The notes under the pieces are model-generated. The model was not told where the DNA came from and did no database searches. It saw only the letters and a program-made list of their open reading frames with translations. Below are positions 21,116-33,412 of a stretch of 64,000 nt of DNA, piece after piece. The DNA is from Pedobacter sp. D749. Its GTDB lineage: Bacteria > Bacteroidota > Bacteroidia > Sphingobacteriales > Sphingobacteriaceae. The stretch is taken from positions 3,038,001 through 3,102,000 of the forward strand of contig NZ_CP079218.1 of assembly GCF_019317285.1 (NCBI RefSeq). Direction: 5' to 3'. Every line of letters starts with the position of its first letter. Position 1 is the first letter of the stretch. A program made the position numbers and the translations under genes.

Positions 21116-22007
21116 GGGTTATTAATGCCGCTAAGTTGAGGAAAATGTATGAAAATAAAAAAGGCGAGTTGCCCCGAATTAGTAAGAACCCTTCGGCGGC
21201 GATGGACCTGTACCGATTTTTCATCGGTAGCCGAGGCAAGACTGCACGAAGAGCAAAACCTGCAAAGGCAATGCAATACGAGCGCATTAAGATTGCTTCG
21301 TGCCTCGCAATGACGACCGTATTGTAGCGAGCGCCTTAAACCCCTATCCGCCTATCGGCACCTTTCCCCTGAAAGGGAAAGGACTAAAAGAAAATCTCCT
21401 TATAACCACCCCCACCCCTCCTAGATTAGGAGGGGAGTTCCCCTCATAGTTTCAAAGGGATCAATATATGGATGCTTTTCTCTACTCCATGCTATCTGCA
21501 TCATGCTATCCGGCCTAGGAAATGATGGAAGGAGAAAACGTTAAAGCTTTTGCACCTCCTTTCAAATTACCACTATCCAGAGGCAGCACGCCCTCCCCGA
21601 TTTTTCATCGGGGGCTTGTGCTGGCGACCAATAAAGCTTTGACGAATTTATCCGACATCAGATCCAAGCCTTGATCTTTTGTTTCTTTTCTATCAAGAGA
21701 AAAGAAAGAGCCCCTCGGCGGCGGTGAGCCGAGGCAAGACTGGACAAAACCTGCAAAAGCAATGTATTACGCATTAAGATTGCTTCGTGCCTCGCAATGA
21801 CGACCGTATTATAGCGAGCGCCTTAAACCCCTATCCGCCTATCGGCACCTTTCCCCTGAAAGGGAAAGGACTGAAAACAAATTACTGCACCCTGCAATAT
21901 GCCCCATGCTATATGCTCCCTGCTATCCGGCCTGGCAGATTTTCGCCGAACATTGTTTCTTTACGCGCTTTGCCAACTCCCTCTCACCACCCAACAACCT
22001 TAACCCA
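21116..22007. other. Gene-free region of mixed dispersed repeats
   Basis: Contains two copies of a segment with TTGCTTCGTGCCTCGCAATG (about 21289 and 21777), each followed by GCGAGCGCCTTAAACCCC and a TTTCCCCTGAAAGGGAAA hairpin. It also holds an AGGAGGGG hairpin (21412-21440), two TATCCGGCC units and a TTTCTTTTC/GAAAAGAAA hairpin (21682-21707). Short frames here are not convincing genes. Confidence 0.7.
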
Positions 22008-24731: not shown

Positions 24732-25961
24732 TTACTTGCTAACAAAGGTATCAATAAATTTCTTTGGTAGTTCTCGATAGCTTCGAATCCTTGCCACATT
24801 GAAATGCCTTATGCTTCCATTTCTAAGTAAGCAGTTAGCTTTCAATAATCGTGTTTCTTTCATTGGGTCAATAGTTGTTTTTTCTACAATTAATTCGTTT
24901 ATGTAAATGATACGTTTAGTGTACTTTTCATTTTTATCGGAATATTGAATTTCAAACCATTTTTTTTCGAAATCAGCTTTTCTTATGTTTTTAAAGAAAT
25001 CTAAAATCCCTTTGTACTTAAACTCCTTGTGATCTAAACTTTCCTGTATGTCTTTAGCGGCTTCTGAACTTGCTTCACTTATTTTTAGCATTTCCTTTTC
25101 AGATGAGAATGTTTTGATTTGCCCTGAAAACTGATCTGTAAATCGATAGATATAAAAATAATGCTTCCAAAGGATATCTTTTATTTTAAGTGGAGTTTTA
25201 ACAATCTTTTTATCCGTTATTTCTTCCAAATAAATTTTAACTGCGTGAAAATAGTATTTATCAGAGCTAAAATTGAGTAAACTAATATCTACAACTTTTA
25301 AAGCATCGAATGAAATATATTCTTCACTATATTTAGAGGTGATATTATTAAGCCACCTTAGTTTGATTAAAATCTTTGATTTTCTGTGGATAGGCTTACC
25401 ATCCTTTTCATTATATTTTTGAGGTTCGTCGTTATATTTAACGTCAATAACTGAACCTAATGGTGGAAGATAATCCAGCAAGTTATTAGTTTTCATTTTT
25501 TGCGTTTCATCATCATCTGACCAAATTTTCTTTTTGCCAAGTTCAAGGTCAACGCTTTTCAAGATCATCATTCTACCTAAAAATTGCTTTTTCAAATCTT
25601 CCAAGGTAGTATTTTTATGCTCTTTTGATGAAGGGGCAAGATTGTCATCGATCAATTTAAGCTCTCTCCTTTTAAACCAGTTTGACTCAAAACTTCCATT
25701 AATCGTGGAATAATACAGGCACTTGTAAGAATCATTATCCTCATGTTCTCCACTAAGGCTATTATATTTTACTCCATAGTTCTTTTCAATTACAACCATT
25801 AGAGGCGGTGTAAAATGGGCATACGTCGTAATAAGGATATTAGAATTAGTTCCGTGGAATGGATGTGCAAGATTTGCAACTATTGAACCAATTGGAATTT
25901 TTTCTTCCACTACTTTTTCAGGCGTAGCTATCTCTGGCTCACCTTGATTATTAAACTCCAT
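24732..25961 (-). CDS. Unknown 409-residue protein, weakly WYL-like C-terminus
   Basis: Cytosolic, no signal peptide, highly charged. The last 70 residues (KRIIYINELI, LLKANCLLRNGSIRHFNVAR) follow the rhythm of WYL-type ligand-binding barrels, with R-x-F and an RI pair. Two earlier segments (FDALKVVDISLLNF, FKRRELKLIDDNL) have a similar strand pattern, suggesting three diverged repeats. WYL domains regulate many defence loci, but no helix-turn-helix is obvious here. It lies inside the AT-rich island, convergent with the XRE operon and divergent from the reverse transcriptase. Confidence 0.55.
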   Translation of the reverse strand: MEFNNQGEPEIATPEKVVEEKIPIGSIVANLAHPFHGTNSNILITTYAHFTPPLMVVIEKNYGVKYNSLSGEHEDNDSYKCLYYSTINGSFESNWFKRRELKLIDDNLAPSSKEHKNTTLEDLKKQFLGRMMILKSVDLELGKKKIWSDDDETQKMKTNNLLDYLPPLGSVIDVKYNDEPQKYNEKDGKPIHRKSKILIKLRWLNNITSKYSEEYISFDALKVVDISLLNFSSDKYYFHAVKIYLEEITDKKIVKTPLKIKDILWKHYFYIYRFTDQFSGQIKTFSSEKEMLKISEASSEAAKDIQESLDHKEFKYKGILDFFKNIRKADFEKKWFEIQYSDKNEKYTKRIIYINELIVEKTTIDPMKETRLLKANCLLRNGSIRHFNVARIRSYRELPKKFIDTFVSK

Positions 25962-25989
25962 AAGATTGTTAATTTAGATTATTGGTTAT

Positions 25990-26359
25990 CGAAACAAATA
26001 TATACATTTGGCCAGCTTATGCAATGGGCTAAAACAGTAGTTTACAATTAGGTAGGATTAAAGAGCTTTTTAGCTTTACTATTAGATTCTAATAGGTCAA
26101 GGTTTACAAACATCTGTGTCTTCTTTATGTAAGATTCCAGAGGTGTCAACCAAACAGTTGAGTAATATTTCAGTCAGAGGCTCCAAGCCAATGAACATTG
26201 TTATAAAGGTATATAATATATATATCATGCAATATAGAGATTTATTTAATAATTTATCGAAATTACAATGACTCAGTTATTGGGTCCTGATCCGCACTTC
26301 GGTGGTATGTAAACATTTAATACTTTATTGATAACCCAAAGCATAAGCTTTTTTAAATT
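25990..26359 (+). ncRNA. Candidate structured leader or non-coding RNA of the reverse transcriptase
   Basis: About 370 bp without an ORF before the RT gene. Hairpins seen: CTATTAG/CTAATAG (26079-26095, perfect), AGAGCTTTTTAGCTTT (about 26063-26078), CAACCAAACAGTTG (about 26147-26160), and a CAC-TTCG-GTG tetraloop stem enclosed by TTGGGT...ACCCAA nearer the ATG. Defence RTs often carry a template RNA at this place. The boundaries are guesses. Confidence 0.35.
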
Positions 26360-27967
26360 ATGAATCGCAAACCAGATTGGCTACAAGGCAAAGGATACCT
26401 CCACATTACGCCTTCATTAAGCATTGATGCTAACTGGAAAAAATACTATAACCGAATAACATCGCCACAGTATATTTCTACTTACGCATTTTATCCTCTA
26501 ATGCATAGAATATTATCCGATAGAAAGTATAAAAAACCTAACCCTAAAAAACATGAAGGAATTAAACGCTCTCATTGCCACAAAATTATAGGGGAAAATA
26601 AAGTTGAAAAAAGTGCAAAAAACAGGCCTTTGCACTATGCTAGCCACTTTGATGTTTTGATTTACTCATATTATGCAGATACGCTTGGTAAACTTTACGA
26701 GGAAAAGTTGCAAAGTAATGAAGAATTAAATAAGGCTGTATTAGCTTATAGAAGAATTCCAATATCAAAAACTAACCAAAAAGGAAAAAGTAATATTCAT
26801 TTCGCAAATGAGGTTTTTAGCGAAATAAATAGAAGAGTAGAATCTGAAGGAAGTACATCTGTATTAGCAATTGACTTAAAAAATTTCTTTTCATCACTAT
26901 CTCACGAAATATTATATGATGCTTGGGCTAAACTACTGAATGTAGAAGAATTACCAACAGATCATCGTAATGTTTTTAAGGCATGTACGAACTTCAGTTA
27001 TATTCTACATAAAGATTTAAAGCAAAAAAATGGTTTTAGATTTGATGAATCAAAGCTAGCCAAAATCAGAAGAGAAAATGGTTTTAAATCTTTCTTTGAA
27101 TCTAATGAAGCCTTTAGAAATGAAATCAAAAATGGCAGACTTCCAATTTATAAAAATCCTTTCAGAAAATTCAATGAACAAACAGGTAAAAAAGAAATGA
27201 TTGGAATCCCTCAAGGGCTTCCCATTAGTGCATTACTTGCAAACCTTTACTTATTAAATTTTGACTCTCATATAATTAAAGAAATTGCGTCAAAATATGG
27301 TGCACATTACAGAAGATACTCTGATGATATTTTAATCTTATGCAAACCTTCAGTTGTTGATGAAATAAATTCATATATTAACAATCTTATATCAAGATAT
27401 AGAATTGAAATAAGCACAGATAAAACTGAACGATTCTTGTTTAAAAAAATGCCTTATAATAAAACAGGCGACGAAAGAATTACTTCTATTAAAATTTTAT
27501 CAGAAACCGAAAATATAATTGACTGCCCTGTAAATTATTTAGGTTTTGAATTCAGAGGTTACAATACATTAATTAAATCAACCAATCTTGCAAAATATTA
27601 CCGTAGATTAATCACAATCATAAAAAGAAGAGCTAGAAGAGCATTAAAACTTTCATTTCATAATCCTAACATCCCCAAGGCCGTATATATTAATCAAATA
27701 AAAAAACTATACAATTCGCCAATAAAATATGCTGATAAGTTAGAAAACAAACAAGTTTTTAGAAAGAGACATTCATTGATCATTAATGATAGAGGAGATT
27801 TTACCTTTGATCACTTTGATGTAGAAGTTAAAAATGCGTCAAATTATATTTCATACCTAAGGAGATGTAAAAAAGAATTTAATTCAAATTCCTTCTCTTT
27901 GCAACTCAAAAAGAAAAAGCAAATAATTGGCCAGGCAATAAATAAGCACTTACAAGAAAGATATTAG
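26360..27967 (+). CDS. Stand-alone reverse transcriptase, unknown-group/defence (DRT) type
   Basis: 535 residues. RT motifs in order: a lead-in (RPLHYASHFDVLIYSYYADT, about 89-108), motif A with the catalytic Asp (LAIDLKNFFSSL, D172), motif B (IPQGLPISALLANLYL, QG at 285-286), motif C YRRYSDDILIL with the metal Asp pair of YSDD (320-323), and a YLGF motif near 393. There is no group II intron maturase X/HNH domain. The lead-in and SNIHFA segment look most like DRT2-type defence RTs, from memory, so the subtype is tentative. The C-terminal 130 residues are Lys/Arg-rich helices. Convergent with the QueC operon, 36 bp between stop codons. Very AT-rich coding sequence compared with neighbours outside the island. 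Confidence 0.85.
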   Translation: MNRKPDWLQGKGYLHITPSLSIDANWKKYYNRITSPQYISTYAFYPLMHRILSDRKYKKPNPKKHEGIKRSHCHKIIGENKVEKSAKNRPLHYASHFDVLIYSYYADTLGKLYEEKLQSNEELNKAVLAYRRIPISKTNQKGKSNIHFANEVFSEINRRVESEGSTSVLAIDLKNFFSSLSHEILYDAWAKLLNVEELPTDHRNVFKACTNFSYILHKDLKQKNGFRFDESKLAKIRRENGFKSFFESNEAFRNEIKNGRLPIYKNPFRKFNEQTGKKEMIGIPQGLPISALLANLYLLNFDSHIIKEIASKYGAHYRRYSDDILILCKPSVVDEINSYINNLISRYRIEISTDKTERFLFKKMPYNKTGDERITSIKILSETENIIDCPVNYLGFEFRGYNTLIKSTNLAKYYRRLITIIKRRARRALKLSFHNPNIPKAVYINQIKKLYNSPIKYADKLENKQVFRKRHSLIINDRGDFTFDHFDVEVKNASNYISYLRRCKKEFNSNSFSLQLKKKKQIIGQAINKHLQERY

Positions 27968-28003
27968 TTATATCATGACACTGGTAATATATTTAAAAAA
28001 TCA

Positions 28004-28603
28004 TCAATCAATTTTTAATTCATGCCTTACCCTTAGTTGCTTCAGGCATCCTGAGCATTTACCACAAGCTAAATTTGAAATATGGCAGGAGTGAGCAATA
28101 GTGAGCATATCAATAGGAACATTATATTTTGATACCAACTCATGGCTATAATAACTCAATGTAGGGCAATGTACTTTTAAGCCCCCTTCTTGATAAGAAA
28201 CTGTATCATTGATTAATTTGTAAAACTCTCCTGTTCCGTCTTTGTGAAATTTATCTGATTTTACTGATGCCAAATACAAATCAGTAACGCCATCTTTAAT
28301 TCCCATCATTGCTGCAAATGTGATTAGCAGCTGATTTCTATATGGCCACCATTCTTCAGATGGCGCAAAGCTTAAATTATCAGCATCAGCTAAAGTTCCA
28401 CTCCCTAAACTTCTGCAATTAATTTGTATAATCTTGTGTTCAATATTTAATAATTCGCAAATATACTTCGACACATATATTTCTCTTTCAGCAACAGTTT
28501 GTCCATAATCAATTGTATAAGCGATGTCTGGCATTAAACCATAAGTCAAACATATTGAGTCAACTCCGCCAGATAATAGGGTTGCTTTTTTTACAAATTC
28601 CAT
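28004..28603 (-). CDS. QueC-like 7-cyano-7-deazaguanine synthase family enzyme
   Basis: 199 residues with the QueC signatures intact: P-loop pyrophosphatase LLSGGVDSICL (11-16), DYGQTVAERE, PYRNQLLITF and the zinc set C173, C180, C183, C186 in HSCHISNLACGKCSGC. Classical QueC converts carboxy-deazaguanine to preQ0 with ATP and ammonia. Last gene of a three-gene operon: its ATG overlaps the kinase-transferase gene by 13 bp. The genome should have a housekeeping QueC elsewhere (a tgt is at 56435), and QueE/QueD are absent here, so a specialised role, such as modifying the small operon protein, is more likely than queuosine synthesis. That role is inference. Confidence 0.85.
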   Translation of the reverse strand: MEFVKKATLLSGGVDSICLTYGLMPDIAYTIDYGQTVAEREIYVSKYICELLNIEHKIIQINCRSLGSGTLADADNLSFAPSEEWWPYRNQLLITFAAMMGIKDGVTDLYLASVKSDKFHKDGTGEFYKLINDTVSYQEGGLKVHCPTLSYYSHELVSKYNVPIDMLTIAHSCHISNLACGKCSGCLKQLRVRHELKID

Positions 28604-29781
28604 ATTGTGTGATAAATTGCTGTTGTTAAATTGTTATAAATTGTGACATCACCTGCATTTAGCATTGTTAGTTGAGGTTTATAACAAGTTCTATGATAAC
28701 CAATTATTTTTTTCCCATTAGCAATTGAATAACCAATTTCTATTAAGGTTCCGGAGTCCAAATTATCTAGGACACAGAATATAATAGCTGACTTATCAAT
28801 CCCTTCAATATCTTTTTTCGCAATAGTTGCATCATCTCCTAAACCAATATCGTGAAACGGAGAGAAAATTTTGACACCAAATCCAAGAAAAGCATTTCTT
28901 ATTTTATCAATTAGAATTAACTCTGCTATTGAAAAAAAAGGAGCTGCCAGGTATATACATATATCGGCTAGTTTATTATTAGCGAATTTTTTATAGCTAA
29001 ATGCCGGGGCAGAAGATGTGTTTATATAAATCTTTTTATCACAATAAAGGGCGGTTGACATAGATGCATAAAGGGCACACTCTTCGAGCTTAAGACCCAT
29101 TTCCATCCAATAATACCCAAAACTAGATGTGAAGATATCCCCCGAACCAATTTTATTTACATTATCCGTTATAAATGAAGGAATTTGCACTTCATCATTT
29201 TCATGATATAGTGTTGCACCATATGGTCCATTCTTAATAATTACCGCTTTAACATTTTCTTCATCAAAAAAGTACCTTTTAATTTCATTTATATCCTCAG
29301 AGGAAGCAATTGATCTTGCTTCATTTAAATTTACGATATATATTAATTCATCAGCGGTACCAATATCTTTAAATTTTATTGGCTTTATAGAAGTTTGAGG
29401 ATCGTAAACAACTTTATTACCCTTTACACTAAAATCTGTTTCCAACATTCCGTAACAAATAATATTCGTACCAGTTAGGTATATTTTATTTGACTTTTTA
29501 ATATTAAGAATACTTGGAAATATAGTGGGATCATCTAGTGCAAAACTGTATTTAAAGGTTATAAATTCATCATAATCAATACAATCGAAATTAAAATTTT
29601 CATAGACCTTTTTATTTTCTGCCAAAAATTTCGAAACTTCCGAACTACCTGTAGTATTAAATTCAACCGCACACTTATTCTCCAATAGAAATTTTACGCA
29701 TCGAAATCCAGATCCGAAAATTTCCATAGCAACATCGTCATAATCAATTTCTCTATATGTTCCGCCAACAACCGATATCAT
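28591..29781 (-). CDS. PfkB-type sugar kinase fused to a nucleoside 2-deoxyribosyltransferase
   Basis: 396 residues. The N-terminal part (1-250) has the PfkB/ribokinase plan, VVGGTYRE at the start, YIVNLNEAR in the middle and KIGSGDIF (catalytic Asp 215) near the end. The C-terminal part (about 273-396) is a nucleoside 2-deoxyribosyltransferase: IYLAAPFF, FSPFHDIGLGDDA, and DSGTLIEIG carrying the nucleophilic Glu 348. One enzyme phosphorylates a sugar or nucleoside; the other breaks and rebuilds the base-deoxyribose bond. Together they suggest nucleoside handling, with the base supplied to or removed from the QueC partner. Start ATG 29781 is preceded by a strong Shine-Dalgarno. Confidence 0.85.
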   Translation of the reverse strand: MISVVGGTYREIDYDDVAMEIFGSGFRCVKFLLENKCAVEFNTTGSSEVSKFLAENKKVYENFNFDCIDYDEFITFKYSFALDDPTIFPSILNIKKSNKIYLTGTNIICYGMLETDFSVKGNKVVYDPQTSIKPIKFKDIGTADELIYIVNLNEARSIASSEDINEIKRYFFDEENVKAVIIKNGPYGATLYHENDEVQIPSFITDNVNKIGSGDIFTSSFGYYWMEMGLKLEECALYASMSTALYCDKKIYINTSSAPAFSYKKFANNKLADICIYLAAPFFSIAELILIDKIRNAFLGFGVKIFSPFHDIGLGDDATIAKKDIEGIDKSAIIFCVLDNLDSGTLIEIGYSIANGKKIIGYHRTCYKPQLTMLNAGDVTIYNNLTTAIYHTIWNL

Positions 29782-29783
29782 AA

Positions 29784-30101
29784 CTATCTCCTCCTTATTA
29801 ATACTCTACAGGCTGGCGATTTGATATCTGATATTTCCGCTTCATATTCGGCTCCACCCTTTATACATTCTATAATATCAGAAGTATTAAGATGCAATAT
29901 GGCACCAAGGATTTCGCCATCACCATCTTCTAAAACCAATGCATTACTACTTCCTATTTCTACATTAAGAACATTTCCTATCTTATGTTTATCTAATACA
30001 GTAATATTGATTGATGAAACGCTTGAAGTGATAACACTGGTTTGACAATCGAAGAATACTCTTTGTGGTGGCATATATCCACCTCCTCCTGATCCGCTCA
30101 T
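29784..30101 (-). CDS. Small protein with Ser/Gly-rich N-terminus, probable partner or substrate of the QueC-like enzyme
   Basis: 105 residues from ATG 30101 (an upstream in-frame ATG at 30158 would add 19 residues without family character). It begins MSGSGGGGYMPPQ, followed by a compact beta-rich domain: VFFDCQTSVITSS, VGNVLNVEI-like strands, GDGEILGAI, and CIKGGAEYEAEI. I recall small proteins of this MSGSGGGG type in defence islands, without a named function. First gene of the operon, stop 2 bp before the kinase-transferase ATG. The flexible Gly/Ser start next to a QueC-like enzyme makes it a candidate acceptor of an N-terminal nucleobase. Confidence 0.75.
   Translation of the reverse strand: MSGSGGGGYMPPQRVFFDCQTSVITSSVSSINITVLDKHKIGNVLNVEIGSSNALVLEDGDGEILGAILHLNTSDIIECIKGGAEYEAEISDIKSPACRVLIRRR
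29788..29796 (-). promoter_or_regulatory. Strong Shine-Dalgarno inside the upstream gene
   Basis: Read on the minus strand AAGGAGGAG lies 6 nt before the kinase-transferase ATG. It overlaps the Arg-Arg-Arg codons that end the small protein, so coupling is built into the coding sequence. Canonical SD sites are uncommon in this phylum. Confidence 0.8.
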
Positions 30102-30143
30102 AATTTGTTGTAGATTAAATTTAACATCTTTATTAATTGGTAA

Positions 30144-30275
30144 ATATTGAATCAGCAAAAAGCACTTATCAATTTAAATGAAACTAGATTAATAGAATGG
30201 TGGCCTTTAAGAAAATACAGACCTTTTAAGAATATTGAAAGTCTCGAGCTTGAATTATTAGATATTGTAATATAG
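30144..30275 (+). pseudogene. Possible short coding remnant
   Basis: A 43-codon open stretch bounded by stops. It reads like a protein C-terminus (LNETRLIEWWPLRKYRPFKN, then IESLELELLDIVI) and has no start codon except an overlapping region. It lies where the operon's promoter would be expected, opposite in strand. Probably the tail of a gene lost when the island was assembled. Confidence 0.35.
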
Positions 30276-30309
30276 ACGAATAAGCAGAAGTTTCCAAATT
30301 TCTAATATA

Positions 30310-30525
30310 TTAACACTTACACGCGCTTTTCTCAACATATGTTTTATTACCATTACTATTGTAATAAAAACAACCGCCTTTAGAGCCTTGATATAATTTT
30401 TGCCCGGATTTGTACGTACCGCATGGCGTGTAAGTCTCGGTATCTGTACCCGCCTCAACTTCATTTTGTTTGCTACATGCAAGTATGCCAATACTTAAAA
30501 ACAGGATATAATAAAATTTTTTCAT
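30310..30525 (-). CDS. Small Cys-rich lipoprotein
   Basis: 71 residues. Lipobox ILAC (Cys 17). The mature part carries the motif CGTYKSGQKLYQGSKGGCFY, then NSNGNKTYVEKSACKC, a short Gly/Cys module known as a C-terminal or stand-alone unit in many Bacteroidota and viral proteins (PBCV-type basic adaptor-like). Four Cys after the lipid site could pair. Function unknown. Confidence 0.7.
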   Translation of the reverse strand: MKKFYYILFLSIGILACSKQNEVEAGTDTETYTPCGTYKSGQKLYQGSKGGCFYYNSNGNKTYVEKSACKC

Positions 30526-30889
30526 GGTGCCAAGATACCTGGCTATAGGAAGTATATTTTACGGTTTCCCTTACCGCCTCAAAAAAAATCAACCTATTCT
30601 TTTAGTTGTAAAGAAAAGCCGAAGAAGACTACGCAGAAGCCAAAACCTAAGACCACGCATTGGCTCTATTTATAAGATTGCTCCGTCTCACTCTACCTAG
30701 CTTCGCGTCCAATAGCTATCTGATGGCGAATTGACCGCAATTATGGTAATTTAAGATCCTTCGCTGTGCTCAGGATGACAAGTATATTCTTAAAAAATGT
30801 CCAAAACATTATGCTAATACCAGATGGGCATTGCTAATTAAGAGTAAGCGTTGGTAATTATTCAAAAATCAGACTACATAAAAGGAAAC
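30526..30889. other. Gene-free spacer
   Basis: Contains one copy of the dispersed GATCCTTCG...CAGGATGACA word (about 30752-30781) and a degraded GCGTCCAATAGCTATC segment. No gene supported. Confidence 0.6.
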
Positions 30890-31708
30890 TCATTCTTCCT
30901 CTACCGCCCAGCTTAACTTATTCGCCTGCTCCACTACCTCCTTTTCCACTTTAGGTTGCGCCACAAAATCGACGATCACACCATCCTTTACATGCAGGGC
31001 GTGAATAATTTTACATGCATAATAACGCCGGTCGGCAAAGCGGGCAGCACCGGTAAAAAATGAAATGCCCATGGCGAAGATCAACGCTTTATCGCCCTGG
31101 TGATTCAGGCCTAAGGTTAAGGTTGTTTTCGGAAAAGGCATGTTATTTAAAGGTATCACCAGGTCATTTACTTCGATAATTTCGTAGCCGCCCTGATCAT
31201 CCAGTTCGAAATGAAAGCCCATCACCTGCAATCGTGCTTCTGTAGCTTTGGGATGCGGTTTCATGAGGGTTTTGAGTTCGCACTTAGGCAGAATAAGTTT
31301 TACTAATCCATCGGGTTCTATGCGCAAATCGGTTTCGCGAAGCCACAACTGTTCCAGGGCTTTGCTGCTGTTAAATTCGAAACCCTTAAGCAAAGTGATG
31401 TTACCGTCAATCAATTTTTTATTTCCTGCTTGTTCGGCTGGCATGGTTTTAAAGATTTCGATAAAACGTTTGTTCAGGCGATTGAGGAGATCGCCATAAG
31501 CATAAAGTTTAACCAGCGGTGCAAAGGCTTTCCGGATGTAGGCGGCATTTCTGCTGGCTGTGCCAAAATCTCGACTGCTTTTTTTGCTCGCTTCGGTTTG
31601 CTGTTTGTGGGCAGCTTTTTGTCTGACAACATCTGTATTTCCGCGTTTGTAAAAAACAAGATCGCCCAGTTGTCCATTAATTTTGATAATTCCATTCTGG
31701 CTAGCCAT
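30890..31708 (-). CDS. Unknown 272-residue protein
   Basis: Cytosolic or released without a signal peptide. The N-terminus (IIKINGQLGDLVFYKRGNTD) resembles a family of Bacteroidota proteins of unknown function (often DUF6266-like). The middle is helical and basic (RNAAYIRKAFAPLVKLYAYG); the second half is beta-rich, ending acidic. No catalytic motif. It sits at the left edge of the 2.1-kb repeat region. Confidence 0.6.
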   Translation of the reverse strand: MASQNGIIKINGQLGDLVFYKRGNTDVVRQKAAHKQQTEASKKSSRDFGTASRNAAYIRKAFAPLVKLYAYGDLLNRLNKRFIEIFKTMPAEQAGNKKLIDGNITLLKGFEFNSSKALEQLWLRETDLRIEPDGLVKLILPKCELKTLMKPHPKATEARLQVMGFHFELDDQGGYEIIEVNDLVIPLNNMPFPKTTLTLGLNHQGDKALIFAMGISFFTGAARFADRRYYACKIIHALHVKDGVIVDFVAQPKVEKEVVEQANKLSWAVEEE

Positions 31709-32322
31709 AATTTTAGTATATTAGGTTAAACAAAAGGGATGATCACTCAATTTAATCAATCTGATTTAAAAATCCCAAAAAAAAATATTCCAAACCCCAC
31801 CTTTACGCCACATTTACCCCACGTTTAAGCCACCTTCCGGCCAGGCTTGCTTATGCCCAACTGTACACCAACTTAACTATAACTTCGGCTTTGCTTCGGT
31901 TGAAATGGAGCTACGGTGAAGGTCGGCGTTATCAAAGATCTGCATCGCTTTCGGTTGGCGGGTTAACAATAGCTAAATAAAAGGTGAAGAGAAACATAGC
32001 TAAGGGTTACTTTGGTATATAGCTGACTCGGTATTAGGGTATGGAGATTAACTTACAAAACACTGGAATATTAGCCAATCATGGTTTAAGTTTCCCGCCT
32101 GCGCGGGATCCGATAACTATCGGATGGCGAACGGCGTATATTTCATAACCACCCCCAGCCCCTCCTTGAAAATAAGGAGGGGAGCTCCCCTCAAAGTTAA
32201 AAAACATATCTCTTCAGATCGCTGTCTCTGCGCCATACTATATACTCCCTGCTATCCGGCTTTAGGATATGATGGAATGATCCTTCGGACTCCGCTACCA
32301 TAGACAGAATCCATTAGCCGGC

Positions 32323-32391
32323 CGTCATTCCCGCGCAGGCGGGAATCTTAAAGCGCTTGCATTACGATTCCCAATCAAGTTGGGAATGACG
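32323..32391. repeat. Double-hairpin repeat (CGTCAT...ATGACG)
   Basis: 69 bp. First hairpin TTCCCGC/GCGGGAA, second ATTCCCAA/TTGGGAAT, between outer CGTCAT and ATGACG. It is the inverse orientation of the copy at 7041-7106. Confidence 0.85.
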
Positions 32392-32888
32392 ATCTCGCTC
32401 AGCCTACCAATTTGCAAAAAAGATCTGTTTTTATATTGATTTTATGAAATAATTATCCTTCAGGATGACAAAAAAACCTGGAGGAAAATAAAAGGAGGAT
32501 GAACTAATCGCGATTGAAAGAACGTGATAAATCCGCTATAATATGCTATCTGCCCCCTGCTATCCGGCCTGGGAAATGATGGAAGGAGATCCTTCGACTC
32601 CGCTCAGGATGACAAAAACCCGAAGGAAAATACAAGGAGGATGAATTGATCGCGATTGAAAGAACGCGATAAATCCGTTACCCCCTGCTATCTGCTCCAT
32701 GCTATCCGGCCTGGCAGATTTCCGCCGGAAAAAGCACGGAAATCTTTGCAGTTCCCCCTCATAACCCCACAACCCAAGGCAGAATCAAAGCGGGAGCGGT
32801 GGAATAAGCAAGGGTAAGAGCCTCGATGCTGCCGCAATCAAGATTTTCGTAGCTTTTTACAAGGAAGGATGCAAGCCTTGATTTTTGG

Positions 32889-32914
32889 TTACCTTTTTAT
32901 CAAGAAAAAGGTAA
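32889..32914. repeat. Hairpin of the ATCAAG-loop family (variant)
   Basis: Stem TTACCTTTTT/AAAAAGGTAA around ATCAAG. The homologous hairpins at 21682-21707 and 33331-33356 have stem TTTCTTTTC/GAAAAGAAA. All three sit between AAGCCTTGAT and a CGGCGGTGAGCCGAGGCAAG block. Confidence 0.8.
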
Positions 32915-32972
32915 GAGCCCCCTCGGCGGCGGTGAGCCGAGGCAAGCCCGAGCTAGGGGGAAAACCTTTAAT

Positions 32973-33034
32973 TGTCATTCTGAACGAAGTGAAGAATCTT
33001 TAAATCAAAAGATCCTTCGTACCTCAGGATGACA
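32973..33034. repeat. Double-hairpin repeat (TGTCAT...ATGACA)
   Basis: Two hairpins (ATTCT...AGAAT and ATCCT...AGGAT) between outer TGTCAT and ATGACA. A near-identical copy is at 33413-33474. Confidence 0.75.
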
Positions 33035-33412
33035 GAAAATAACAAGGCAAGCCTGAATATTATTTCCTAACCACCCCTGCCCCTCCTAAATCAGGAGGGG
33101 AGTTCCGCTCATAGTTTCAGAGGAATAAATCTACGGATGCCTGTCTCTGCACCCTGCTATCCGGCCTGGCAGATTTTCGTAGAAATAAGCATTGAAATTC
33201 TTGCACAACCCCACAATACACCGCTGCCCAAGGCAATATAAAGTTCCGATTCTTCATCGGGGCCTCCATATTGCCGCAGTAAGAATTTCGATAGCTTAGT
33301 TCAAGAAAGGATGCAAGCCTTGATCTTTTGTTTCTTTTCTATCAAGAGAAAAGAAAGAGCCCTCGGCGGCGGTGAGCCGAGGCAAGACTGAGTGATGGGA
33401 AAAACCTTTAAT

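What the first reader, a model, noticed from the sequence alone, without database searches (positions are those of the whole stretch)
28004..30101. Unusual three-gene operon: Gly-rich small protein, PfkB-NDT fusion and QueC-like enzyme
Seen: 2-bp gap and 13-bp overlap make a tight unit; all QueC catalytic and zinc residues, the PfkB GSGD motif and the NDT Glu are intact. Known: QueC makes preQ0 from CDG; QueC-like enzymes also appear in defence loci, such as type IV CBASS (Cap9) and Qat (QatC). I recall a report that the CBASS QueC-like enzyme links a deazaguanine to its partner protein's N-terminus. Inference: this operon is a stand-alone nucleobase-protein conjugation or nucleotide-signalling defence system with NDT/kinase instead of a TGT-like partner. 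No QueC/PfkB-NDT/small protein system is known to me.
Basis: partly seen in the sequence, partly recalled or inferred. Interest (0 to 1): 0.92.

Follow-up and report, generated by a model that had tools for sequence, protein, structure and literature searches.

The report
Bacterial protein-tagging operon, probably antiviral
A three-gene unit found in bacteria and archaea, often among antiviral genes, looks built to attach a guanine-like base to the front end of a small protein, a reaction so far shown in one antiviral system and suspected in a second.

Summary
The three genes are there as described and form a real unit. Among 80 related loci picked by their QueC-like gene, 80 have a PfkB-NDT match beside it and 76 the small protein; of the 4 gaps, 2 are contig ends and 2 broken loci. 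In 395 genomes drawn from the phylum, small protein and PfkB-NDT occur in the same 7. The small protein is a disordered tail starting M-(S/G/T)-G plus a HIRAN-like fold; such tails are what QueC-like enzymes modify, or are thought to modify, in type IV CBASS (MGGS) and Qat (MGTS). Neighbour proteins match 166 PADLOC families, against 6 around canonical queC. Many loci add a SagB-like dehydrogenase, OGG-like glycosylase, Dam or dGTPase. QueC plus PfkB-NDT is in print as 'Cluster 4', read as purine salvage (PMC13329287); the small partner and defence setting I did not find in print. Best reading: a third QueC-based N-terminal nucleobase-protein conjugation defence system. Conjugation and defence are untested. 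Two of 39 carriers tested show no QueE, the CDG maker, so the base may not be CDG everywhere.

The parts
29784..30101 (-). small Gly-rich protein (P0001, 105 aa), proposed acceptor
   Evidence: homologue directly upstream of PfkB-NDT in 76 of 80 genome loci
30045..30101 (-). disordered N-terminal tail MSGSGGGGYMPPQ... (residues 1-19)
   Evidence: mean pLDDT 53 for residues 1-10, 73 for 11-20; M1 and G3 invariant and S2 nearly invariant in 69 sequences
29787..30044 (-). HIRAN-like domain (residues 20-105)
   Evidence: AlphaFold2 model pLDDT 87; Foldseek E 2.1e-4 to 3k2y, 4.8e-3 to HLTF HIRAN; VIA-align Z 12.1 to 3k2y_A, 7.2-9.4 to six HLTF HIRAN entries
28591..29781 (-). PfkB-NDT fusion protein (P0002, 396 aa)
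28993..29781 (-). ribokinase/PfkB-type kinase domain (residues 1-263), NxxE and GSGD (D215) intact
   Evidence: VIA-align Z 22.8-25.1 to the 50 entries listed, rank 1 pseudouridine kinase 7vva, ties
28594..28959 (-). NDT domain (residues 275-396), E348 invariant
   Evidence: PF05014 1.6e-13 at residues 276-364
28004..28603 (-). QueC-like ATP-dependent enzyme (P0003, 199 aa), PF06508 Cluster 4 type
   Evidence: signature text in PMC13329287
28235..28246 (-). HKDG substrate-pocket motif; D122 aligns with the Asp that reads the guanine edge in Cap9 and QueC
   Evidence: my reading of the alignment; residue roles from PMC13279940; HxDG in 86 of 89 loci
28046..28087 (-). zinc cysteines C173, C180, C183, C186
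   Evidence: invariant in 9 aligned sequences
26360..27967 (+). neighbouring DRT2-type reverse transcriptase (context, not part of the unit)
   Evidence: PADLOC Drt2 7.5e-120; NCBIfam Drt2 1.7e-89, below its cut-off
24732..25961 (-). WYL-YodC protein of the DRT locus (context)
   Evidence: PADLOC RTasWYL-YodC 1.5e-89

Best explanation
The trio is an anti-phage (or anti-mobile-element) module built round N-terminal nucleobase-protein conjugation. Proposed order: (1) methionine removal exposes Ser2 (sometimes Gly, Thr or Cys) of the flexible tail of the small HIRAN-like protein (inferred). (2) The QueC-like enzyme adenylates the carboxylate of a 7-deazaguanine-type base, probably 7-carboxy-7-deazaguanine (CDG), and couples it to that N-terminal amine, as Cap9 does in type IV CBASS (inferred from family, pocket and tail). 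(3) PfkB-NDT plays the part that the TGT-like Cap10 plays in CBASS: its NDT domain binds the protein-linked base and may attach or remove a deoxyribose, and the kinase domain may phosphorylate it (speculative). (4) The modified HIRAN-like protein acts at DNA ends, forks or damage during infection (speculative). Accessory genes in other hosts (SagB-like dehydrogenase, OGG-like glycosylase, Dam, dGTPase, Mrr-type nuclease) extend or regulate it. Shown here: the conserved unit, the tail, the predicted fold, the kept active-site residues and the defence setting. Inferred: all chemistry.
For: Unit: PfkB-NDT match in 80 of 80 and small protein in 76 of 80 loci; same 7 of 395 phylum genomes. Tail: an M-(S/G/T)-G start is found in 84 of 85 small-protein ORFs, window included, the other having an assembly gap; 70 MSG, 2 MGG, 1 MTG among 73 dereplicated. 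The cyclase of a CBASS locus with a QueC-like gene (L205) starts MGGSGGGF, the same eight residues as the unrelated small protein in L094. QueC-like: profile hits QueC 2pg3 6.6e-15 and Cap9 9nto 4.7e-13; the guanine-edge Asp is kept, where QatC has Thr (PMC13279940). HIRAN-like fold. Defence: DRT2 next door; 166 against 6 PADLOC families for 107 neighbour proteins each; in three E. coli loci read, cargo of islands with tyrosine recombinases. Parallel: rhizobial operons with a PfkB relative, TIR protein, OGG-like or DNA-lyase gene, QueC and a second TIR protein starting MGGGSSG or MGGGGGG. CDG supply: QueE in 37 of 39 carriers tested, window genome included.
Against: No conjugate, mass shift or phage assay exists. 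Two of 39 carriers tested (G095, G106) show no QueE and no canonical QueC. Residue 2 is mostly Ser, not the Gly of CBASS and Qat. L195 has no such tail, L194 has MSS. The stacking Tyr of the pocket is His. In the tree the trio QueC is its own clade, and the one Cap9 falls on the other side, with canonical QueC and the TIR-operon QueC (that Cap9 branch is long and its place unsure). A HIRAN-like fold does not show DNA binding.
Confidence: 0.58

Rival explanations
1. Purine or deazapurine salvage: QueC-like enzyme and PfkB-NDT interconvert free bases, nucleosides and nucleotides, as PMC13329287 proposes for Cluster 4; the small protein is a regulator.
For: The enzyme families act on bases and nucleosides; the pair is read so in PMC13329287; G095 shows no QueE and has a gene annotated for queuosine salvage (VUT family) beside the locus.
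Against: Near-obligate small partner with a conserved N-terminus; patchy occurrence and defence neighbourhood; accessory nuclease, glycosylase and dGTPase genes.
Confidence: 0.15
2. Nucleotide signalling: NDT and kinase make a modified nucleotide messenger; the small HIRAN-like protein is the sensor or receptor.
For: Kinase and NDT catalytic-type residues invariant; rhizobial operon with TIR proteins.
Against: No shared effector seen: none of four common accessory families in 30 of 111 loci; the tail conservation is unexplained.
Confidence: 0.12
3. DNA modification or anti-restriction: the trio supplies a modified deoxyguanosine for DNA, with OGG-like glycosylase and Dam as partners.
For: OGG-like gene in 69 and Dam in 39 of 111 loci; 7-deazaguanine DNA modifications exist (PMC6884629, search listing and start of abstract only).
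Against: No TGT-type (DNA-inserting) enzyme among the five window genes scanned, and many loci have no DNA-acting accessory gene in view.
Confidence: 0.07

Closest known systems
type IV CBASS (CD-NTase, Cap9 QueC-like, Cap10 TGT-like)
   Same: QueC-like enzyme beside a partner with a Gly-rich N-terminus; guanine-edge Asp kept; an enzyme family acting on glycosidic bonds alongside
   Different: no CD-NTase and no TGT hit in the window genes scanned; partner is HIRAN-like and residue 2 mostly Ser; NDT plus kinase instead of Cap10; QueC clade separate
Qat (QatA-D)
   Same: QueC-family enzyme with a partner whose N-terminus (MGTS) is essential (PMC13279940)
   Different: no KAP ATPase or TatD hit; QueC-like protein is 199 aa without QatC's extensions; pocket HxDG, not the two Thr of QatC; partner is a small HIRAN-like protein, QatB is helical
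PF06508 Cluster 4 with PfkB-NDT (PMC13329287)
   Same: same QueC signature and same PfkB-NDT neighbour: this locus fits it
   Different: the parts of that paper that I read propose purine salvage and mention neither the small protein nor a defence setting for this cluster
Rhizobial TIR / OGG-like / QueC / TIR operon (L010, L196-L198)
   Same: PfkB relative, QueC, glycosylase-type gene and a Gly-tailed partner
   Different: the C-terminal half of its PfkB protein is diverged and shows no NDT Glu motif (my reading); partner is a TIR protein; its QueC scores higher with the canonical model (TIGR00364 8.3e-36)
Hachiman HamB
   Same: a C-terminal stretch superposes on the small protein's domain (8vxy_B, Z 7.6, a middling value)
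   Different: large DNA helicase; no QueC, no Gly tail known to me

Membership tests
PF06508 QueC, Cluster 4 (PMC13329287) | PF06508 domain and C-terminal CH(x)5CxxCxGCxK | tested here: met
   PF06508 5.5e-18; window CHISNLACGKCSGCLK
PF06508 QueC, Cluster 4 (PMC13329287) | PfkB-NDT (PF00294-PF05014) neighbour | tested here: met
type IV CBASS | CD-NTase (SMODS) in the operon | tested here: not met
   no SMODS hit in the five window genes scanned; present in L205
type IV CBASS | QueC-like enzyme conjugates a deazaguanine to the partner's N-terminus | not testable with these tools
   needs mass spectrometry; tail and pocket compatible
type IV CBASS | TGT-like Cap10 | tested here: not met
   no TGT hit in the five window genes scanned; note that the L205 gene in the Cap10 position has no Pfam hit either
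Qat | QatA KAP ATPase and QatD TatD nuclease | tested here: not met
   no such hit in the five window genes scanned
Qat | QatC with N- and C-terminal extensions, ~400 aa | tested here: not met
   P0003 is 199 aa
canonical QueC (preQ0 synthesis) | YxQxHxxE and YPDC motifs | tested here: not met
   YGQ(x)5E and HxDG instead; TIGR00364 56.6 bits against cut-off 150.3
HIRAN domain fold | structure superposes on solved HIRAN domains | tested here: met
   predicted model: Z 7.2-9.4 to six HLTF HIRAN entries, the best four 9.1-9.4 over 84 residues at 2.1-2.3 A; no Pfam hit by sequence
HIRAN domain fold | binds 3' DNA ends | not tested
   no comparison of binding residues and no assay was made
nucleoside 2-deoxyribosyltransferase | PF05014 domain with catalytic Glu | tested here: met
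   51.2 bits over cut-off 28.8; E348 invariant; its role as the catalytic Glu is recalled
anti-phage defence system | reduces phage infection | not testable with these tools
   only neighbourhood evidence

The most novel reading that the evidence does not exclude
The system builds a protein-linked nucleotide. The QueC-like enzyme joins a 7-deazaguanine base to the tail of the HIRAN-like protein, the NDT domain transfers a deoxyribose onto that base (dGTPase supplying deoxyguanosine as donor where present), and the kinase domain phosphorylates it, so that a DNA-end-type protein carries its own deoxynucleotide. Where a SagB-like gene is present, Ser2 is further cyclised (QueC's second ATP step, which makes a nitrile in preQ0 synthesis, making an oxazoline instead) and oxidised to an oxazole. 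Predicted shifts on the Met-less protein if the base is CDG (own arithmetic): +176.03 Da conjugate, +156.01 oxazole, +292.08 deoxynucleoside, +372.05 deoxynucleotide.
Probability: 0.12. Interest if true: 0.96.

Novelty: new variant of a known kind. Interest (0 to 1): 0.84.

Why it matters
N-terminal nucleobase conjugation of proteins was reported in 2025 in one system and is suspected in a second. A third system, spread over distant phyla, with a tiny acceptor, its own kinase and deoxyribosyltransferase, and no cyclase, would show that this is a general modification used in immunity. The acceptor is about 105 residues, so intact-mass analysis could settle the chemistry directly. It would also re-file a QueC cluster now read as purine salvage, and offer a small model for the open question of what the base on the protein does.

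Tried and rejected
Ser2 and the SagB-like gene: Gly or Cys at position 2 was seen only in loci without that gene (6 of 41, against 0 of 61; Fisher 0.003; L033, L194 and L195 dropped from that count). After dereplication p is 0.0066-0.010. On a tree of 103 loci there are only 4 changes of residue 2, and independent pairs give no support (median p 1). The oxazole idea is therefore kept only in the novel case.

Cap9 kinship: a GSG[ED]L[VA]G stretch shared with 9NTO looked like a shared mark. A loose pattern for it is missing in the L205 Cap9 and one trio protein and present in 1 of 20 canonical QueC, and the tree does not join trio QueC with Cap9. Not used.

CDG as the only substrate: not upheld for all carriers (37 of 39). 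I gave 39 of the 51 genomes. QueE was judged with one model (TIGR03365) at 40 bits or more, below its cut-off in all but 2 of the 39; that model rings in 10 of 14 control genomes where PF06508 rings in 12, so its silence in G095 and G106 is not proof of absence, and its presence may be ordinary for these groups (no background was run).

Defence control: ORFs of 150 aa or more from a simple caller. Trio side: 107 proteins from 20 loci after leaving out six ORFs without a proper end and the trio and accessory families found by BLAST clustering; a few accessory genes or false ORFs may remain. Control side: 107 of 191 proteins, from 12 of 20 canonical queC stretches, QueC itself left out. The counts are of families; several models can match one protein.

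Small protein by sequence: only a 12.8-bit PUA_4 match and no convincing PDB sequence match; the fold came from the model. Annotated phage records: no PfkB-NDT relative, only distant QueC relatives in 15 records. Viral contigs: 53 relatives, of which L091-L098 are at 39% identity or more. Rfam: nothing at gathering score in 25900-30900, one match of E 0.32. No tRNA in the window.

Literature: (open-licence PMC papers only, so a subscription paper could be missed). Read: PMC13329287 parts 1-3 of 5 and passages; PMC13279940 parts 1-3 of 6 and passages; PMC11996544 abstract only; PMC10013915 passages. That type IV CBASS loci often hold an OGG gene is recalled and was not confirmed; L205 shows SMODS and a weak SLATT match but no OGG hit.
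Full report
OBSERVATION. The window holds three minus-strand genes at the stated places: a 105-aa Gly-rich protein (30101-29784), a 396-aa PfkB-NDT fusion (29781-28591) and a 199-aa QueC-like protein (28603-28004), with a 2-bp gap and a 13-bp overlap. Pfam supports proteins 2 and 3; the small protein has no significant family. All three are under purifying selection against L012 and L011 (dN/dS 0.06-0.23). The nearest relatives are in Pedobacter (94-95% identical QueC-like protein).

CONSERVED UNIT. A scan of genome contigs with a QueC-like alignment found 263 relatives, of which the best 80 were kept. A PfkB-NDT match is beside it in 80 of 80 and the small protein upstream in 76 of 80. Of the four without it, L014 and L055 end within PfkB-NDT, L021 has a broken PfkB-NDT and L078 a split one. 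Because these loci were picked by QueC, I also ran a test not conditioned on it: in 395 genomes drawn evenly from the phylum, the small protein (E 1e-5) is in 7 and PfkB-NDT (E 1e-30) in 7, the same 7 (the window's own among them), side by side. Carriers include Bacteroidota, Pseudomonadota, a cyanobacterium and haloarchaea. 22 of 5426 complete E. coli genomes hold DNA like the Citrobacter copy, 18 of them over at least 80% of the query.

THE SMALL PROTEIN. A start M-(S/G/T)-G is found in 84 of 85 ORFs, window included; the exception has an assembly gap. Among 73 dereplicated proteins 70 are MSG, 2 MGG, 1 MTG. Loci added later brought exceptions: L191 MCG, L194 MSS, L195 no such tail. A linker of variable length follows, then a domain; two Cys are invariant. 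The AlphaFold2 model (69 sequences) has mean pLDDT 87, residues 1-3 below 50. Its domain superposes on 3k2y lp_0118 (Z 12.1, 86 residues, 2.2 A), on the HIRAN domain of human HLTF (six entries, Z 7.2-9.4, 84 residues, the best four at 2.1-2.3 A), on Rad5 (8.6) and on a stretch of chain B of a Hachiman HamAB structure (7.6, a middling value). The HLTF domain is solved with DNA (titles); whether this one binds DNA is open.

THE QUEC-LIKE ENZYME. It carries the signature that PMC13329287 gives for its Cluster 4. Of the two pocket residues that PMC13279940 names in Cap9 (Tyr stacking on the base, Asp reading the guanine edge), the Asp is kept and the Tyr is His: HxDG in 86 of 89 loci (mapping read from the alignment). 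QatC has two Thr there (PMC13279940). A guanine-like base therefore remains the likely substrate. In a quick tree of 45 proteins the 21 trio enzymes form one clade (SH-aLRT 100) apart from 20 canonical QueC, one Cap9 and three TIR-operon QueC.

PFKB-NDT. The motifs NxxE and GSGD and Glu348 are invariant in 60 aligned sequences. The model (pLDDT 93.6) has a full ribokinase fold in residues 1-263; pseudouridine kinase, ribokinase and a nucleoside kinase tie at Z 24.6-25.1. Both halves look active (inference). The substrate cannot be told from this.

SETTING. Next door lie a DRT2-type reverse transcriptase and its WYL-YodC protein. To test for defence islands I took 20 genomes that hold both the trio and a canonical queC. 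The 107 trio neighbour proteins match 166 PADLOC families at 1e-10; 107 neighbour proteins of canonical queC (107 of 191, from 12 of the 20 control stretches) match 6. These are family counts, not protein counts. In the three E. coli loci read, the module lies in islands with tyrosine recombinases (between ssb1 and yjcB in L149 and L151; beside tRNA-Sec in L150).

ACCESSORY GENES. In 111 loci (some near-identical; plasmid, genome, viral-collection, E. coli and phylum-sample loci, and L010 of the other operon) 65 show a SagB-like nitroreductase, 69 an OGG-like HhH glycosylase, 39 Dam, 21 dGTPase and 30 none of these in the stretch held. Three nitroreductases tested have the SagB peptide dehydrogenase domain as best NCBIfam match (1.2e-11 to 2.7e-18, below its cut-off), which points to work on a peptide. 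A nuclease family whose L009 member matches Mrr_cat appears in 4 of 89 loci.

A TELLING PARALLEL. Four rhizobial plasmid loci (L010, L196-L198) hold in a row a PfkB relative, a TIR protein, a glycosylase-type gene, QueC and a second TIR protein. In L010, the one tested, the first TIR protein also matches TGT weakly (PF01702, 0.0014, below cut-off), the glycosylase matches Ogg-HhH (9.7e-25) and the second TIR protein is ThsB-like (9.4e-26). That second protein begins MGGGSSG or MGGGGGG in all four. The cyclase of the L205 CBASS locus, taken as type IV because of its QueC gene, begins MGGSGGGF. So three unrelated kinds of protein beside QueC-family enzymes share a Gly-rich free N-terminus.

CDG SUPPLY. 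The window genome shows no canonical QueC but a protein that reads as QueE, so CDG can probably be made, and the trio enzyme is its only full-length QueC-family protein in that search. QueE was found at 40 bits or more in 37 of 39 carriers; G095 and G106 show none and also no canonical QueC. This speaks against CDG as the sole substrate, unless the model or the genomes miss it, or the base is salvaged or taken from phage DNA.

JUDGEMENT. Functional unit: shown by co-occurrence. Defence role: strongly suggested by setting, untested. Tail conjugation by the QueC-like enzyme: best-supported mechanism, untested. Role of NDT and kinase: open. In print I found QueC plus PfkB-NDT read as purine salvage (PMC13329287), but neither the small partner nor the defence link (searches; open-licence papers only).

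Noticed in passing
window 24732-27967: DRT2-type reverse transcriptase with a WYL-YodC protein, a defence locus directly beside the trio.
   Followed up: partly
L010, L196, L197, L198: Operon of PfkB relative, TIR protein (with a weak TGT match in L010), glycosylase-type gene, QueC and a Gly-tailed TIR protein (ThsB-like in L010): a possible further QueC-based defence system.
   Followed up: partly
own genome and relatives: Only 4 of 59 genomes (window's own included) show a QueC match over nearly the whole domain, although the window genome keeps QueE: what these Bacteroidota do with CDG is unclear.
   Followed up: no
window 21504-21952 and 32231-33390: The same families of repeats (up to 101 nt) lie on both sides of the low-GC defence stretch.
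   Followed up: no
window 30177-30275, + strand: Open tail reading ...IEWWPLRKYRPF...DIVI stop, just upstream of the small gene; possible gene remnant.
   Followed up: no
L006, L191, L192: Haloarchaeal small proteins appear to carry the domain twice, L192 with a long acidic linker.
   Followed up: no
L097: Viral-collection contig with two small-protein and two PfkB-NDT copies in tandem.
   Followed up: no
L149, L150, L151: E. coli islands with the full module and a dGTPase, annotated as anti-phage in L149 and L151.
   Followed up: partly
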